A stretch of 64,000 nt of DNA from Acholeplasma hippikon (GTDB lineage: Bacteria; Bacillota_I; Bacilli_A; Acholeplasmatales; Acholeplasmataceae), in NCBI RefSeq assembly GCF_900660755.1, contig NZ_LR215050.1, forward strand, positions 124,001 through 188,000, given 5' to 3'. Below the pieces are notes generated by a model. It did no database searches and was not told the DNA's origin. It saw only the letters and a program-made list of their open reading frames with translations. The position numbers were made by a program, and so were the translations under genes. Below are positions 29,322 to 37,555 of this stretch, one piece after another. Position 1 is the first letter of the stretch. Every line of letters begins with the position of its first letter.

Positions 29322-30683
29322 ATGAAATTTGATGTACTATTCACATCACACAAGAAGTTTTATCAAACAAAAATAACTAAATCATATCAATTTAGAATTG
29401 AACGATTGAGAAAACTACAAACAACGATTAAAAAATATGAACCTAAAATACTAGAAGCTTTAGCATTAGATTTGGGTAAATCACATGAAGAAAGTATACT
29501 CACAGAGGTAAGTGTTGTTTTAAGTGATTTAAATCATACAATCAAAAACTTAAGAAGATGGATGAAATCAAAAAAGGTTAAAACGCCACTGGTTTTATTT
29601 CCTGGAAAATCAAAAATAGTAAAAGAACCTTATGGAACTGTTTTAATCTTAAGTCCTTGGAACTATCCATTCCAATTAGCAATGAATCCTTTAATTGGTG
29701 CGATTGCAGGTGGTAATACTGTAGTGTTAAAACCTAGTCCATTAAGTGAACATACAAGTTTAGTGATTAAAGAAATTATTGATGAAATTTTTTCAAGTGA
29801 CTTTGTATCATGTGTATTAGGCGGTATCGAAGAAGCAAATCAACTATTAGATTTAAAATTTGATTATATCTTCTTTACAGGTAGCACAAATGTAGGAAAA
29901 CATGTCATGGAAAAAGCAAGTAAAAACTTAACACCTGTCACATTAGAATTAGGTGGTAAGAGTCCGGTTTATATTGATGAGACATTTGACTTAGACTTGG
30001 CAGCTAAAAGAATTGTTTTTGGCAAGTTAATTAATGCAGGTCAAACTTGTATTGCCCCTGACTATTTATTTATTAAAGAAGGTTTAGAAGAAACTTTTAT
30101 TAAACATGCTATGAAACATGTTGAAGCATTTTATACTGCAAATCCAATTGAAGCAAATAATTATCCAAAGCTAATCACAGAAAGACATTTAAAACGCCAA
30201 TTAGCATTAATTGAGCCACATCATGTGGTTTATGGAGGAAAATCAAATAAAGAAAAATTAGAACCGACTTTCTTATTAAATGTTAAAAAAGAAGATCAAG
30301 TTATGCAAGAAGAAATCTTTGGACCTATATTACCAATCATGATCTATCAAGAACTTGATGAAGTTATTTCATATATTTTAGAACATGATAAGCCATTAGC
30401 TTTCTATGTTTTTTCTAATAATAAAAACGCAGTTAAAAAATTAATGCATACCATATCGTTTGGTGGTGCGACTGTTAATGATACATTAATGCATTTTGTT
30501 AATCAAAACCTACCTTTTGGAGGTGTAGGTGGATCTGGAATGGGTGCCTATCATGGTAAATATAGTTTTGATACATTTACGCATCAAAAACCAATCTTAA
30601 CAAGAGGGAAACTTGATTTACCTTTTAGATATCAACCAGTAAATAAAAGAACATTAAAGATACTTAGAAAGTTCACGAAATAA
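29322..30683 (+). CDS. NAD(P)-dependent aldehyde dehydrogenase (class 3-like)
   Basis: Oxidises aldehydes to acids. 453 residues, the shorter class 3/YwdH-like form. Catalytic Cys243 in NAGQTCIAPDYLFI and general base Glu209 in TLELGGKSPV are both present, as is the cofactor loop FFTGSTNVGKHV (about 187). SPWNYPFQLAMNPLIGAIAGGN (about 107-128) is the typical coenzyme-binding stretch. ATG 29322 is preferred to the in-frame GTG 29313, because AAGGG (29309-29313) is the ribosome site. Monocistronic. Membrane association through the C-terminal basic tail (RYQPVNKRTLKILRK) is possible but not shown. Likely role: clearing fatty aldehydes. Confidence 0.93.
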   Translation: MKFDVLFTSHKKFYQTKITKSYQFRIERLRKLQTTIKKYEPKILEALALDLGKSHEESILTEVSVVLSDLNHTIKNLRRWMKSKKVKTPLVLFPGKSKIVKEPYGTVLILSPWNYPFQLAMNPLIGAIAGGNTVVLKPSPLSEHTSLVIKEIIDEIFSSDFVSCVLGGIEEANQLLDLKFDYIFFTGSTNVGKHVMEKASKNLTPVTLELGGKSPVYIDETFDLDLAAKRIVFGKLINAGQTCIAPDYLFIKEGLEETFIKHAMKHVEAFYTANPIEANNYPKLITERHLKRQLALIEPHHVVYGGKSNKEKLEPTFLLNVKKEDQVMQEEIFGPILPIMIYQELDEVISYILEHDKPLAFYVFSNNKNAVKKLMHTISFGGATVNDTLMHFVNQNLPFGGVGGSGMGAYHGKYSFDTFTHQKPILTRGKLDLPFRYQPVNKRTLKILRKFTK

Positions 30684-30712
30684 AAACCAGAAATTAATTT
30701 CTGGTTTTTTTA
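30682..30712 (+). terminator. Terminator after aldehyde dehydrogenase
   Basis: AAAAACCAGAAA (30682-30693), loop TTAA, TTTCTGGTTTTT (30698-30709), overlapping the stop codon. Confidence 0.93.
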
Positions 30713-30793
30713 TCTTTAGTTATGTATAGATAGTTATCTATAAAAAAAAACAATGTATAATTATATTGAGATATATAGTGGGAGGATTAATGG

Positions 30794-33700
30794 ATGCAAA
30801 TAGATTATGCAAATTATCCTGATTTATTTTTATATGCACAGTTAGGTGCGGTAGGACTTGCGGCTTTATCAGGATTTCTATTTGGTTTAAAAAGGGGATT
30901 TTATAAAGCGTTATGGAATTTGGTTTCTAGTGTTGTGGTTTACGGAGGTTTTATTGCACTCCTTAGTTTAGTGCATTTAACTGATGTAGTTAAACCGGAA
31001 ATGCTAAATCAAATTGTTCAAATGATTAACATACCTGAAGTAACAAAATATTATAACTATGTCATTGAGGCAAATGCTTTAAATGCGGTGTTATCAATTG
31101 TTGATTTAGTGATTAAAATTATTTTATTTGTTGTCTTAAGTGGATTTTTAAGATGGTTAATTAATGCACTAACATTCGGTATTGTTTGGTTATTTATTCG
31201 AAAAAAAGTTAAAAGATTACCTAAGCACCGTTTCTTAGGTGGTATGGTAGGTATGGTAAAGGGTGCAGCATTTTCTGTCATTCTTTTTATACCTGCATTA
31301 GTTTTATTTGATACCATTGTCGGCGATGGTTTAGAATCAAGTGAACCTGAACTTCAAGAAATAACAGAAGGTTTATCAAAAGCAAACGAAGTCAACATGA
31401 TTCGTTATATTAATGAAATTGAAATTAATGGTGTTGGTGCTGGGAATTATTTATTTGACTTAGTATTTACATCAAAAGTTGATGAAACACAAACAATTAC
31501 TTGGCGTGAAGAGTTAGTGTGGGTAGCAGAAGGCGTAAGAACTGCACTTCCTCAGTTATCAGAATTAGAAAATGGTGGATTTGAAAATTTCACAATTGAC
31601 GATATCATTAGATATGAAGGCTTTTTCGTTAAGTTTTCAGAATCTAAGTTCTTAAATTCCCTTGTAAAACCAGGTATTAAAGTTGGATTAACCTTCTTAG
31701 CGGATGATGAATCAAATACATTTATTTCAAAAGATGATTTAGAAGCATTATATGCTAGAGTTGATGCCACAGAGATTGTCTTAAGTGAAGATATTTATGA
31801 TATTTATTTAGCAGTTAAAGATTTATTAACAATCCAAGATTATCAAGCATGGCAAGCTTTATTTAATGATTATTCTAGGGTTGCTTTATTCGATGAAACA
31901 CAACAAGCTTTATTTGTGAGTGCATTAAATAAAGTTGCTAACCTAGATTTAATCGAATTAGGTGATATTGCATTAGAAGTTGCTATCTTCATGGATGAAG
32001 TGAAACACAATATCACATGGATACAAACAGATGAACAAAAGGTTCAATTCTTAAATAATGTAAAAACAAAGATTACTGCCTATGAAGGCAATTTCATTCG
32101 TTCTGTATTAAATCAAACTGTTGATTTATTTGAAACAGTATTATACGAATTCCCAGGAATTGATCTAGATAATGATGGTATCGCAGATGTTGAATTAAAA
32201 GACTTCTTATCTAGAATTTCTGATTTGACGGTTATTTTAAATAGTGATGATACGTATCATGCATGGTTTAAAGATGCGTTAACTAAGTTTGGTGATTATC
32301 AAATTATTGATACATTTATGGAAGAAATCACTGATTATATGTTCTTCTCAATTAGTAATGCGGCAACTGGATGGGCTGAAGAAGAACTTGATTTATTATT
32401 AGAAATTATTAATGAAAACTTTGGTAGTACTGATGATTTAAAACGTGAGTTAGCATGGATTGCTGATGTTTATAAAGAATTAGGAAAATTAAATATTGCT
32501 GTTGATTTAGCAAATAATGAAGATTTTGTTGTAATTTTAGATAACTTATTAACAACTAATGATGGCAGAGAACAATTTAAAATTACATTCAATAAGATTT
32601 TAGATGGACAAACAATTAGTCAATTAACAAATCGCATGAGTAGAGCTTTAGTTGATAAATTCTTGACAGAGCCGCTTGAGTTAGTTGAACCAATCACTGC
32701 TGCAATGGATATTCCTACTTTCCAATTTAGAACTGAAATGGATGCAGTCGTAGACATTGTATTAGGTTTATATGAAGAAGGGTTAACATTAGCTGATGCA
32801 TTTAGTGACAATGCGAATATGATTGCAACCTTACTGCCAGCATTAATTGAGTTTGTCAAAGATGAAGACAATAAAAATTCAGTTTTATCATCAAATATCT
32901 TATACTCATTTATTAACTATAATTTAACTAAACTTGATGCCATTACCGTTCCGGATACAGCATTTGAAACAACTGGTGTTTATGCAACATGGATAAAAAA
33001 ATCTGAATTATCAGTTGTCTTAGATGTATTAGGTGGTTTAGCTGATGAAATGGAAGCACAAGGATTAAATATTGCTGATTTATTCAGTGGTGAAAATGCT
33101 GATTTATTAACGGACTTATTGCCAGTGATTAAAAATTATGCTTCAGATGATGATAATAGAACATTATTATTAAGTTCTGAAATTCTATACTACACATTAT
33201 CTGAAAATCTAAAAGAAGTTGATGCACTTGAAGTTCCAGAAGATGCATTAGATACGCTTGCTCCATATGAAAATTGGATTTTAAGAACAGAATTAGATAA
33301 GTTATTAAGAGCAATTATTATTATTGATATCGACATTCCTGCTGAAGGTGAATCACTTGATTTATCAGGTATTACAGGAGAAAAATTACGAGATGTTATT
33401 GCAGTAGAATCTGCAATTATTAGACGTAATATAACAACACAATTATTAGCAGCTAATCTATTAACAATTCCAACGCCAGCCTTTATGAATCCAATTGATT
33501 TAAAAGACTTGAAACAAGAAGAGTTATTATCGTTAGCTGATTTACTAGTAACATTAAACTTAGACTTAGGTGCATTAGGAGAGGATTCAGATCCTACTTC
33601 AATTCTAAATACTGTTTTAGTGGATAACTTAATTTCAATTGATTATGAAGACTCATTCTTAATCCGTTCATTCATTACAATGGGTATTGAATCCGGATTA

Positions 33701-35725
33701 ACATTGCATCCATTAGCAATGGATCCAGTACATAACGAAATACTATCTGCAACAGAAATTGGCGAATTGTTCAAGATTTTAGATACTTTAGACCCAGATG
33801 ATAACATGACTGTTCAAGAATTATTAGACACAATGAGTGACCCTAATAACTTAACATTCAAACAAGTAAGTGATATTGTTAATGCGGGTGATTCAATTAT
33901 TATTCGTTCATTACTATCAGAAAATCTATTAGCAATCAGTTTAATTAGTGATTTAAATCTCAAAGAAGAAGTCTACCATAATGATGGTACGGCATACGTA
34001 CATGATTTATTAAGTTATGATGAAGTGAAACGATTAGTTGCTTCCTTAATTCATGTAGCTGATAGTGAAGACGATTTCGTTATGGATTTAGCATCTGGTT
34101 TAGATGTGAATGCAATAACACTAGATAAGATTAACTTAATGATTGGTGAAAGTTCATTAATCGTCAATACATTAGTTTCAACGAAAATTGATGAGTTAGG
34201 CGTCATTGATATTCATCCGGATGCACAAGATCAAGATGGTGAAATTATGAATGTTCACTTACAAGGCATGATGCAAGCATTAGCTAATACATTAGGTGGC
34301 ACAACAACAATTAACGACTTAGACACAATTCAAGATGAATTATCAATTGGTAATTTAAGAACACTGATTACATCAGATTCATTAATCATTAATTACTTCA
34401 TGACTAAGATGATTCTTGATAATGTTGGCCAACAATATGATCGTACATTAGCGCATGATTCAGATCCATTAGTCTTCTCATCAACTGAATTTACAAACTT
34501 ATTTAATGGCTTAGCAGTCTTAGACCCTGCAGGCGATGAAACAACACAAGTTGTGGAAGTTGTTGGTTCATTAAACGACTTAACAATTACTGAAGTATCT
34601 CAAGTGGTTGCCTCTGGATCTCATATTTTAAGAGCAAGAATTTCTCATGAATTAATTACAAATCTTGGTGAAGATGATATTCATCCACATACAATAGATG
34701 GAAATGGTGATATCTTACAAGCAGATTTAGATGATTTATTCTTAGCATTAGCAATCTTAGGTCCAAATACAAAAGTCACTGAATTAGGCACATTAGTATC
34801 TGATAATATGACTTTACAAACAATTAGTGATATGAGACAATCTAATTCAAGAATCTTTGAAGGTATGTTATCTAAGATTATTGTTCGCACAATGAGCGCG
34901 CAAGACGTTGAAATTCGAGATGATGTATATGTGAATGATATCGAATTAGGTAAAGATGGATTTGGTTTATTAACTGCAACTGAAGTTACAAGTTTATTAA
35001 ACTCAATTGGTATCTTATCAGGTAATCCAAATAGCCCACTGCTAAGTGTTGTACAAGGCGTAAATATCAATACAATTTCACCGTTAATGTTAGGAGATAT
35101 CGCAGATGAAGAATCAGTAATTATCTATAGATTAATTACCAAAAATATTATTGATTCAGGAATCTCAGTACCAACTGATTCATTACAAGCGGGATACTTG
35201 AATGAATATCTAACTAAACTTGAATTAACAAACATTGGATTAGCGTTAGATGCGTTTGGATTAACTTCTCTAGAAGTAAACTCAATTAACTCACAAACAA
35301 CTTCATTTACAATCTTACGTAATGTAGTTGCTAAAGACTCAATGATTGTGAATAGAAAAGTATCTGAAGGTATTGTAAGTGCGAACCTTGATACAGTTGA
35401 ATCACATGAAACTATGGAAGATAATGATATTCAAACAGAAGAAATTCTTAACTTATTTGATGCGTTTGAAGCGTTAAGCCTATCAAATATTGCTGATAAA
35501 GATAGCATATCTGTATTCCAATTATTCGCAGCTGCACAAAGCATACCGCAAGCAGACTTTGAAACTTATATTGGTTATGGAGAATTAGATGAAGAAAAAG
35601 GTATGACAATTGTTAAGGACTTCTTAATTGAAAGACTTGATGATCAAATCCCTGACTTCTCAAATCCAGGTCAAAATATTCGTGTTCAAACAAGACAAGA
35701 TTTAATTGATTTAATCTACGGATAA
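30794..35725 (+). CDS. Giant repeat protein with CvpA-like membrane domain
   Basis: 1643 residues. Residues 1-175 hold four membrane helices (about 12-30, 40-63, 97-135, 150-175) resembling the CvpA family; basic loops LKRGFYK and RKKVKRLPKHR put the even loops in the cytosol, so the remaining 1460 residues should lie outside. From about residue 680 the chain is built of about eleven diverged repeats. Nine have a clear anchor S-x-(I/L)-I-x-R near residues 871, 951, 1031, 1117, 1193, 1273, 1349, 1438 and 1514, i.e. about 76-89 apart; each contains an acidic E-(I/L)-x-x-L stretch and a (L/I)T-(L/I) turn. Very acidic. No LPxTG, no lipobox. ATG 30794 follows GGAGG (30781-30785) by 8 bp. Function unknown. 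Confidence 0.85.
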   Translation: MQIDYANYPDLFLYAQLGAVGLAALSGFLFGLKRGFYKALWNLVSSVVVYGGFIALLSLVHLTDVVKPEMLNQIVQMINIPEVTKYYNYVIEANALNAVLSIVDLVIKIILFVVLSGFLRWLINALTFGIVWLFIRKKVKRLPKHRFLGGMVGMVKGAAFSVILFIPALVLFDTIVGDGLESSEPELQEITEGLSKANEVNMIRYINEIEINGVGAGNYLFDLVFTSKVDETQTITWREELVWVAEGVRTALPQLSELENGGFENFTIDDIIRYEGFFVKFSESKFLNSLVKPGIKVGLTFLADDESNTFISKDDLEALYARVDATEIVLSEDIYDIYLAVKDLLTIQDYQAWQALFNDYSRVALFDETQQALFVSALNKVANLDLIELGDIALEVAIFMDEVKHNITWIQTDEQKVQFLNNVKTKITAYEGNFIRSVLNQTVDLFETVLYEFPGIDLDNDGIADVELKDFLSRISDLTVILNSDDTYHAWFKDALTKFGDYQIIDTFMEEITDYMFFSISNAATGWAEEELDLLLEIINENFGSTDDLKRELAWIADVYKELGKLNIAVDLANNEDFVVILDNLLTTNDGREQFKITFNKILDGQTISQLTNRMSRALVDKFLTEPLELVEPITAAMDIPTFQFRTEMDAVVDIVLGLYEEGLTLADAFSDNANMIATLLPALIEFVKDEDNKNSVLSSNILYSFINYNLTKLDAITVPDTAFETTGVYATWIKKSELSVVLDVLGGLADEMEAQGLNIADLFSGENADLLTDLLPVIKNYASDDDNRTLLLSSEILYYTLSENLKEVDALEVPEDALDTLAPYENWILRTELDKLLRAIIIIDIDIPAEGESLDLSGITGEKLRDVIAVESAIIRRNITTQLLAANLLTIPTPAFMNPIDLKDLKQEELLSLADLLVTLNLDLGALGEDSDPTSILNTVLVDNLISIDYEDSFLIRSFITMGIESGLTLHPLAMDPVHNEILSATEIGELFKILDTLDPDDNMTVQELLDTMSDPNNLTFKQVSDIVNAGDSIIIRSLLSENLLAISLISDLNLKEEVYHNDGTAYVHDLLSYDEVKRLVASLIHVADSEDDFVMDLASGLDVNAITLDKINLMIGESSLIVNTLVSTKIDELGVIDIHPDAQDQDGEIMNVHLQGMMQALANTLGGTTTINDLDTIQDELSIGNLRTLITSDSLIINYFMTKMILDNVGQQYDRTLAHDSDPLVFSSTEFTNLFNGLAVLDPAGDETTQVVEVVGSLNDLTITEVSQVVASGSHILRARISHELITNLGEDDIHPHTIDGNGDILQADLDDLFLALAILGPNTKVTELGTLVSDNMTLQTISDMRQSNSRIFEGMLSKIIVRTMSAQDVEIRDDVYVNDIELGKDGFGLLTATEVTSLLNSIGILSGNPNSPLLSVVQGVNINTISPLMLGDIADEESVIIYRLITKNIIDSGISVPTDSLQAGYLNEYLTKLELTNIGLALDAFGLTSLEVNSINSQTTSFTILRNVVAKDSMIVNRKVSEGIVSANLDTVESHETMEDNDIQTEEILNLFDAFEALSLSNIADKDSISVFQLFAAAQSIPQADFETYIGYGELDEEKGMTIVKDFLIERLDDQIPDFSNPGQNIRVQTRQDLIDLIYG

Positions 35726-35766: not shown

Positions 35767-35842
35767 ATGATTTCCTTTTGTAAACATTAGTTATTTTGAT
35801 ACAATCAAATTAAGAATAGAAATCATTAATAAGGTGAAAAAA

Positions 35843-36727
35843 ATGATAGCAGATAAATTTACGCAGCCGTTTGGAGCAGAAACATCTGACAAAGGTGTTA
35901 CTTTTGTGTTAAACGATTATGAAGGGGTCATGTTAGAAGTTAAATATAGTTTTGTAAATTATGTTTTTGCAGGATTTATACTTGAGCGAACATTAACAAG
36001 ACAAGAAATTGGTGAACTTGCATCAGTTGCGGGCATGCGACTACAAGTACTTTCAACATATAAAGAATTTAATTTAGTTGGTCTTATGTTAAATATGAAG
36101 TTGGATATGGCAAAATCTATCTTAGAAAAAATTGTAGAAAAATTAAAAACAATGAATATTAATGTATTAACAAATAATATTTTTAGTGATAAAGAAAAAG
36201 ATGCATATTTTGATTTTTTATTTAACTTTAATCAATTTAAATTTAAAGGCTTAAAACTGCCTGTTAATAAAGAAGATTTAGAAAAACGTATGAAGTACAA
36301 TGAAGCAGTAGAAAAAGAAAAAGAATCAAACTTTACGCATGCAATTGTATTAGCATTTGTAGGTTCAGTTTTAGGTGCAATTCCAGCGTTTTTAGCTTTA
36401 TTCATGGGTGGATTCATGCACTTCCTTTTATATCTACCAATTCCAATTGTTTCAGTCTTTTTATATAAACGCGCCAAAGGTCCTTCAAAACCTTTAGCAA
36501 CCATTTTAGTCAGTGTATTTACGTTAGTTATTGTTGTGGGGATGATTTTATTTGCCTATAGTTCACTTGCACTTTATGAAAATATGACATTATCTCAACT
36601 GCTTAATCAAGAAGGCATCATGGCAGAGTTTGTTTCAAATATGTTATTTAGTTTGTTAGGTGCTTGTTTTGCTATTTATGCTTCATTTAGATATATTAAT
36701 CTATCAGGAAATAAAGAAAGTATTTAA
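35843..36727 (+). CDS. Hypothetical membrane protein
   Basis: Not recognised. 294 residues: a soluble N-terminal half of about 155 residues, then four membrane helices at about 163-183, 186-206, 215-241 and 260-280. The N-terminal half ends in a charged helix (KEDLEKRMKYNEAVEKEKE). ATG 35843 is chosen as AAGGTG (35831-35836) lies 6 bp before it. Upstream TTTGATACAATCAAA (35795-35809) is a near palindrome over a possible -10; its half-sites resemble those at the fab promoter but with a 5-bp spacer. Own terminator, so monocistronic. Confidence 0.65.
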   Translation: MIADKFTQPFGAETSDKGVTFVLNDYEGVMLEVKYSFVNYVFAGFILERTLTRQEIGELASVAGMRLQVLSTYKEFNLVGLMLNMKLDMAKSILEKIVEKLKTMNINVLTNNIFSDKEKDAYFDFLFNFNQFKFKGLKLPVNKEDLEKRMKYNEAVEKEKESNFTHAIVLAFVGSVLGAIPAFLALFMGGFMHFLLYLPIPIVSVFLYKRAKGPSKPLATILVSVFTLVIVVGMILFAYSSLALYENMTLSQLLNQEGIMAEFVSNMLFSLLGACFAIYASFRYINLSGNKESI

Positions 36728-36874: not shown

Positions 36875-37555
36875 ATGAAAAAAGCAAGTTATGGTTGGTT
36901 ATTAAAGTTTATTCTTGCAGCAATTTTAATTACTGTGGGTGCCACAATGTTCTTTAGACAAGAACTCGTTTATTTAATCACAGGATTAGGTATTGTGATC
37001 TTTAGTTTATTTAGAATTGTTCCATTAATGAAATCGCTAAATAAAGAAGTGTTAAGAACAATTAATTTAATTGAAGTATTAATTGATACAATTCTTGGCG
37101 CGATTATGATTTATGCTGGCATACAAGCGTTAAATAATGAATTAGCATTAAATGATGGTTGGGGATTAGTTTACCGTTATACATTAGTGACTGTGTTTGT
37201 TATTCGTGCAATTGTCTTCTTATATTCAGTTACTTTCTTAGGTGAAAAAACTGAACAAGTTAAATTCTGGAGTCATATAATTGTGTTTGCTATTGGGGTT
37301 GCGATGGCAGCTTACCAAGACTTTAATGCAGAATGGGTTGCATGGTTAATTCTATTTATTTCTGTATTAGGTGGCGGCTACTTAATTTATGATGGAACAA
37401 GAGGTTACGGTAAATATCGTGAATTTAGTAAAGAATTAAATGAAGGTAAAGTAAAAGAAAAAGAAGTTAAAAAAGATAAACGTATTGAAAAAGAATTACC
37501 TAAAGAAAGTGAAGTCATTATTGAAAAAGATGATGATAGACCATACGTTAGTTAA
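36875..37555 (+). CDS. Hypothetical six-helix membrane protein
   Basis: 226 residues, not recognised with confidence; the helix pattern resembles DUF308/HdeD-like small membrane proteins. Helices at about 8-27, 29-48, 62-85, 98-120, 131-147 and 151-171, followed by a strongly charged cytosolic tail (KEKEVKKDKRIEKELPKE). Ribosome site GAGGGG (36863-36868). Monocistronic, closed by a strong terminator before the fab operon. No functional residue stands out. Confidence 0.65.
   Translation: MKKASYGWLLKFILAAILITVGATMFFRQELVYLITGLGIVIFSLFRIVPLMKSLNKEVLRTINLIEVLIDTILGAIMIYAGIQALNNELALNDGWGLVYRYTLVTVFVIRAIVFLYSVTFLGEKTEQVKFWSHIIVFAIGVAMAAYQDFNAEWVAWLILFISVLGGGYLIYDGTRGYGKYREFSKELNEGKVKEKEVKKDKRIEKELPKESEVIIEKDDDRPYVS

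What the first reader, a model, noticed from the sequence alone, without database searches (positions are those of the whole stretch)
30794..35725. 1643-residue CvpA-like protein with about eleven extracellular 80-residue repeats of unknown family
A four-helix CvpA-like membrane part is fused to a huge acidic repeat region. The repeat anchor S-x-(I/L)-I-x-R recurs about every 80 residues from 871 to 1514, and two related but longer units lie before it. By the positive-inside rule the repeats are outside. It is the largest gene in the window, well expressed by its start signals, and I know no described family for the repeat. It may be a surface scaffold, adhesin or lipid-contact protein of a wall-less cell.
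Basis: partly seen in the sequence, partly recalled or inferred. Interest (0 to 1): 0.75.

Follow-up and report, generated by a model that had tools for sequence, protein, structure and literature searches.

The report
Giant CvpA-anchored repeat protein of Acholeplasma
A wall-less bacterium makes a very large protein that is predicted to be held in the membrane by a small four-helix anchor and to carry eleven copies of an undescribed helical repeat outside the cell, and the same design, up to about 6,000 residues long, turns out to be common among its relatives.

Summary
The 1643-residue ORF is real and conserved in all seven same-genus genomes (38-45% identity); named relatives are Acholeplasma granularum and A. 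oculi. A repeat profile finds exactly eleven units: two longer ones from residue 687, then nine of about 80 residues. Shuffled controls give none. The repeat matches nothing in Pfam, NCBIfam, PHROGs or PDB sequences. A three-repeat model is confident (pLDDT 89) and has no good PDB match. The N-terminus is a distant CvpA (Colicin_V) relative: eight of 17 homologues hit PF02674 (sub-threshold), profile comparison gives about 96%, and one relative keeps the Firmicute-like cvpA-mutS2 order. Charge pattern and cysteine exclusion (5 Cys in 63,309 residues, about 250 expected) put the array outside. Repeat number varies through tandem duplication. Phytoplasmas lack it, and it is commoner in genomes without penicillin-binding transpeptidases. 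Adhesin or surface-scaffold function remains inference. New variant of a known kind, with a new repeat family.

The parts
30780..30785 (+). Ribosome-binding site GGGAGG of the giant gene
   Evidence: read directly
30794..35725 (+). Giant CvpA-anchored repeat protein gene, 1643 aa
   Evidence: homologues
30818..31336 (+). CvpA-like four-helix membrane anchor, residues 9-181
   Evidence: hydropathy; PF02674 hits in homologues; hhalign
31337..32851 (+). Membrane-proximal region, residues 182-686, acidic, predicted helical; conserved over the class
   Evidence: low-confidence model
32162..32194 (+). DLDNDGIADVE loop (residues 457-467), calcium-loop-like, seen in several genus members
   Evidence: metal binding is inference
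32852..33136 (+). Repeat 1 (long unit), residues 687-781
   Evidence: profile hit
33137..33370 (+). Repeat 2, residues 782-859 (closest to repeat 1, 37% identical)
33371..33613 (+). Repeat 3, residues 860-940
33614..33850 (+). Repeat 4, residues 941-1019
   Evidence: structure model
33851..34114 (+). Repeat 5, residues 1020-1107
   Evidence: structure model
34115..34339 (+). Repeat 6, residues 1108-1182
   Evidence: structure model
34340..34579 (+). Repeat 7, residues 1183-1262
34580..34807 (+). Repeat 8, residues 1263-1338
34808..35074 (+). Repeat 9, residues 1339-1427
35075..35299 (+). Repeat 10, residues 1428-1502
35300..35479 (+). Repeat 11, residues 1503-1562
35480..35725 (+). C-terminal cap, residues 1563-1643, conserved in the genus; ends ..RQDLIDLIYG, no sorting signal or membrane helix
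35732..35761 (+). Terminator-like hairpin after the gene; with the one at 30682-30709 it suggests a single-gene transcript

Best explanation
It is a surface protein. A CvpA-like bundle of four helices, with both ends outside, anchors the chain in the plasma membrane. A membrane-proximal helical region of about 500 residues follows, and then a tandem array of eleven all-helical units of about 80 residues, each with a variable loop of roughly ten residues between its two conserved helices. The array most likely stands off the membrane of a cell without a wall as a long stalk, acting in attachment or as a surface scaffold, with length set by tandem duplication of units in the middle of the array. 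Shown: the gene, its conservation, the repeats, their expansion and a distant CvpA relationship. Well supported by indirect evidence: outside location. Inferred only: the stalk shape over the full length, and the attachment or scaffold role.
For: Charge pattern over 17 homologues: loops 1 and 3 positive (2.8 and 5.2 K+R, 0-0.4 D+E), loop 2 and the stretch after TM4 acidic (4.5 and 7.4 D+E). Cysteine: 0 in this protein, 5 in 63,309 residues of the giants collected against about 249-274 expected from neighbouring genes. Repeats: 11 units here, 0-20 per homologue by the same profile. Outer units 1-5 and 10-11 pair one to one between species of the genus while the middle changes; some relatives have neighbouring units 94-100% identical, the pattern of repeat-length evolution common in surface proteins. 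Three-repeat model pLDDT 89, pTM 0.86. Absent from all 29 genomes of the phytoplasma-type genus (23 carry the phytoplasma SVM signal), present in 46 of the other 59 genomes of the family. Anchor plus outside-domain precedent: MarP.
Against: No experiment. No Pfam adhesin, carbohydrate-binding or other binding domain was found. Cysteine is scarce in this genome generally (0.39%), so for this protein alone zero has probability about 0.0015; the strength comes from the family, whose members are related. The full-length model is poor, so stalk geometry is not shown. Genomes with transpeptidases also carry relatives (19 of 94), so it is not special to wall-less cells.
Confidence: 0.5

Rival explanations
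1. Transport first: the CvpA-like bundle works as a small exporter or channel component, and the outside array captures, shields or gates its substrate. CvpA in enteric bacteria is needed for deoxycholate resistance and is placed by Pfam in the LysE exporter clan.
For: CvpA phenotypes and clan placement from PMC6705877. Conserved G31, R34/G35, K38, G149, G153, G157 and P167 in the membrane part suggest more than a passive anchor.
Against: Transport by any CvpA is itself unproven. The array is far larger than a gate needs and varies several-fold in length between species, unlike a tuned transporter.
Confidence: 0.2
2. Envelope-sensing or mechanical role: the array bears load or senses the surface in cells with reduced or no wall, signalling through the CvpA bundle.
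For: Profile hits are commoner in genomes without PF00905 transpeptidases (53 of 104) than with them (19 of 94), Fisher p 8e-6.
Against: The test ignores shared ancestry. About half of transpeptidase-free genomes lack it, and in the family-level search so do all phytoplasmas.
Confidence: 0.15
3. Opposite topology: the repeats are cytoplasmic, a scaffold inside the cell.
For: No signal peptide and no direct localisation data.
Against: Positive-inside pattern and cysteine exclusion both point outside across the whole family.
Confidence: 0.06

Closest known systems
CvpA / Colicin_V family (PF02674; E. coli CvpA, B. subtilis YshB)
   Same: Four-helix membrane part, conserved glycine-rich last helix, sub-threshold Pfam hits in homologues, and mutS2 next door in one relative
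   Different: CvpA is about 160-250 residues; here about 1460 residues are added after the fourth helix
MarP (Rv3671c) of Mycobacterium
   Same: Four N-terminal membrane helices followed by a domain outside the membrane (PMC4992679)
   Different: MarP's outside part is a serine protease; no protease domain was found here, only helical repeats
Repeat-variable surface adhesins and stalk proteins of bacteria (general class, from memory)
   Same: Tandem units outside, unit number variable between species, near-identical neighbouring units in some
   Different: Most known ones use beta-sandwich or coiled-coil repeats with a signal peptide and wall anchor; here the repeats are helical, with no signal peptide or sorting motif, and the anchor is CvpA-like at the N-terminus
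EF-hand / dockerin-like calcium loops
   Same: One DxDxDG loop at residues 457-467 and D/N/G-rich loops in some repeats; EF-hand chains appear among weak fold matches at Z about 2
   Different: No Pfam EF-hand hit; DxDxDG is only about 2.5 times above shuffled sequence over the family

Membership tests
CvpA / Colicin_V (PF02674) | Score above Pfam's gathering cut-off (29.3 bits) | tested here: not met
   Window protein: no hit. Best homologues about 24-25 bits, E 1.5e-5 to 2.8e-5. So it is called CvpA-like, not a Pfam member.
CvpA / Colicin_V (PF02674) | Four membrane helices with the family's sequence pattern | tested here: met
   Four segments; profile-profile match to class CvpA proteins, probability 95.7-97%, 135-198 columns
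CvpA / Colicin_V (PF02674) | Gene neighbourhood with mutS2 (Firmicutes) | tested here: inconclusive
   Seen in one homologue, L055: next gene has PF00488 MutS_V, E 1.9e-26. Not at the window, where neighbours are an aldehyde dehydrogenase and a membrane protein.
MarP-type CvpA protease | Trypsin-like protease domain after the membrane part | tested here: not met
   No Pfam or NCBIfam family above threshold anywhere in the protein
EF-hand proteins | EF-hand sequence profile | tested here: not met
   No EF-hand hit in repeats or membrane-proximal region
EF-hand proteins | EF-hand fold | tested here: inconclusive
   EF-hand chains only at Z 2.0-2.2
Wall-anchored surface proteins (LPXTG type) | C-terminal sorting motif, hydrophobic tail and charged end | tested here: not met
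   C-terminus ..RQDLIDLIYG; no hydrophobic segment near the end
Wall-less host | No penicillin-binding transpeptidase in the genome | tested here: met
   PF00905: no match in G000; other wall genes not tested

The most novel reading that the evidence does not exclude
A class-wide, undescribed family of giant CvpA-anchored surface proteins forms a proteinaceous coat that takes over some jobs of the cell wall in wall-less and thin-walled Bacilli, built from a new helical repeat whose number sets the thickness of the coat.
Probability: 0.17. Interest if true: 0.85.

Novelty: new variant of a known kind. Interest (0 to 1): 0.6.

Why it matters
Acholeplasmas and their free-living wall-less relatives have little known surface machinery. 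A gene that is usually single-copy, conserved through most of the family, lost in phytoplasmas and shared in outline with many other Bacilli, is a strong candidate for a main surface protein. It also gives CvpA, a widespread protein of unclear function, a natural fusion that may show which side of the membrane it works on. The repeat is a new family with a confident predicted fold and no clear match among solved structures.

Tried and rejected
Known repeat family: Pfam, NCBIfam, PHROGs and PDB by sequence, single proteins and family members, gave only chance-level hits. Fold: Foldseek on PDB best E 0.98; VIA-align best Z 4.1 (YmgD, 82 residues, 4.4 A), others below 3; viral library best E 0.17. 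By the tool's own note this does not prove a new fold. Full N-terminal model (residues 1-1014, four sequences): pLDDT 53, too poor to use. First repeat alignment A3 was discarded because overlapping windows aligned by identity, not by register. PF02674 in the window's own genome: no hit. Viral contigs: no relative. EF-hand idea: not supported by profile. Papers on A. laidlawii vesicle proteomes: main texts do not name the protein; their supplements could not be read.

Full report
WHAT IS THERE. The ORF at 30794-35725 (+) encodes 1643 residues. It has a GGGAGG ribosome site and terminator-like hairpins before and after it, so it is probably transcribed alone. Residues 9-181 hold four hydrophobic segments; nothing after that looks like a membrane helix. 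The remainder is acidic and the whole protein contains no cysteine.

THE REPEATS. A profile from the nine regular units, iterated over 29 homologous sequences, recovers eleven units in this protein, each at E 3e-9 or better, and none in shuffled sequences. The most conserved positions are a Thr, the anchor Ser and a Glu, with a regular hydrophobic pattern; the strict motif in the finding matches only three places. In its own genome the repeat occurs in this gene alone. Predicted with twelve non-overlapping three-unit stretches, residues 938-1182 fold with pLDDT 89 and pTM 0.86 as short helices with a small beta bridge closing a loop between the two main conserved helices. No solved structure matches well, and no sequence library searched knows it.

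THE ANCHOR. The window protein alone does not reach Colicin_V. Its homologues do, weakly: one at 1.9e-5 in a genome scan, eight of 17 at E<=0.1 with a best of 1.5e-5. Profile-profile comparison with small CvpA proteins of the same class gives 95.7-97%. In one relative the giant gene is followed directly by a MutS-domain-V gene, recalling the cvpA/yshB-mutS2 region of Firmicutes (from memory). Together these make a distant CvpA relationship likely, without formal Pfam membership.

WHICH SIDE. Over 17 homologues the loop between helices 1 and 2 and that between 3 and 4 are positive, the other loop and the start of the long tail are acidic. That predicts both ends outside. Independently, the giants hold 5 cysteines in 63,309 residues where about 250-270 would be expected from neighbouring genes. 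Cysteine exclusion is known in Gram-positive bacteria (Daniels et al. 2010, as cited in PMC8425097; that citing paper applies it to cytoplasmic proteins as well, so it is supporting and not decisive). MarP gives a precedent for a four-helix anchor with an outside domain (PMC4992679).

THE FAMILY. All seven other genomes of the genus have it at 38-45% identity; three are named: A. granularum, A. oculi and UBA4853. In the taxonomic family 46 of 88 genomes have it. The 29 genomes of one genus, 23 of which carry the phytoplasma-specific SVM signal, all lack it. In 198 genomes sampled over the class, 72 match the N-terminal profile, in open frames up to 6056 residues. Of the 42 genomes with the repeat profile, 38 also have the anchor profile (Fisher p 2e-16), usually in the same open frame. 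So repeat and anchor travel together. The profile A7 includes the CvpA-like part, so some of the weakest of the 72 may be other CvpA proteins; 60 remain in a set chosen as stronger hits (about E<1e-10), 14 of them in genomes with a transpeptidase.

HOW IT EVOLVES. Within the genus, units 1-5 and the last two pair one to one between species, while the middle of the array is gained and lost. A relative with 19 units shows units two steps apart 53-63% identical, that is, duplication of two-unit blocks; more distant relatives show neighbouring units 94-100% identical. That is recent tandem duplication.

WALL OR NO WALL. The N-terminal profile is commoner in genomes without a PF00905 transpeptidase (53 of 104) than in genomes with one (19 of 94), p 8e-6. 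This is not corrected for shared ancestry. Peptidoglycan has been lost several times in this part of the class (PMC10868615).

VERDICT. Function is not shown; attachment or surface scaffold is the most likely use, at about even odds. The new points are the class-wide giant family, the coupling of repeat and anchor, the cysteine exclusion, and the absence from phytoplasmas.

Noticed in passing
L033:3341-3500 (G002, 1,496,992-base contig, the size of A. laidlawii PG-8A from memory): The first roughly 40 codons of the homologue are in another frame than the rest, so the anchor's first helix is out of frame in this genome. Could be a real lesion, phase change or sequencing error.
   Followed up: partly
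L034:2650-2760 (G001): The homologue lacks its ribosome site, start and first helix, apparently by deletion between short similar sequences; the same genome has another copy with a full N-terminal part on contig C52.
   Followed up: partly
L059:63-4481 (G001 contig C22): A second repeat-bearing ORF of 1472 residues with ten repeat units but no CvpA-like start in the part seen; may be cut or a paralogue.
   Followed up: no
L039 (G032), residues 1916-2450 of the giant: Seven or so neighbouring repeats are 93-100% identical at protein level, a very recent expansion.
   Followed up: no
L039:1280-2167, L049:3163-4047, L052:2448-3332: In several relatives a cation-efflux (CDF) transporter gene lies just before the giant gene on the same strand (Pfam-confirmed in L039 only), and DNA polymerase III alpha lies upstream in others.
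   Followed up: no
G169 contig C7 (6056 aa), G228 (4803 aa), G186 (4250 aa): Even larger CvpA-anchored open frames in another family of the class, in genomes that do have transpeptidases; their repeats were not matched by this profile.
   Followed up: no
window 35834-36727: Neighbouring 297-residue membrane protein with only a weak, sub-threshold SpoIIGA (Peptidase_U4) hit, E 0.0068.
   Followed up: no
window 36875-37555: Six-helix membrane protein of 226 residues that stays near the giant gene and a biotin-carboxylase-like gene in several genus members.
   Followed up: no
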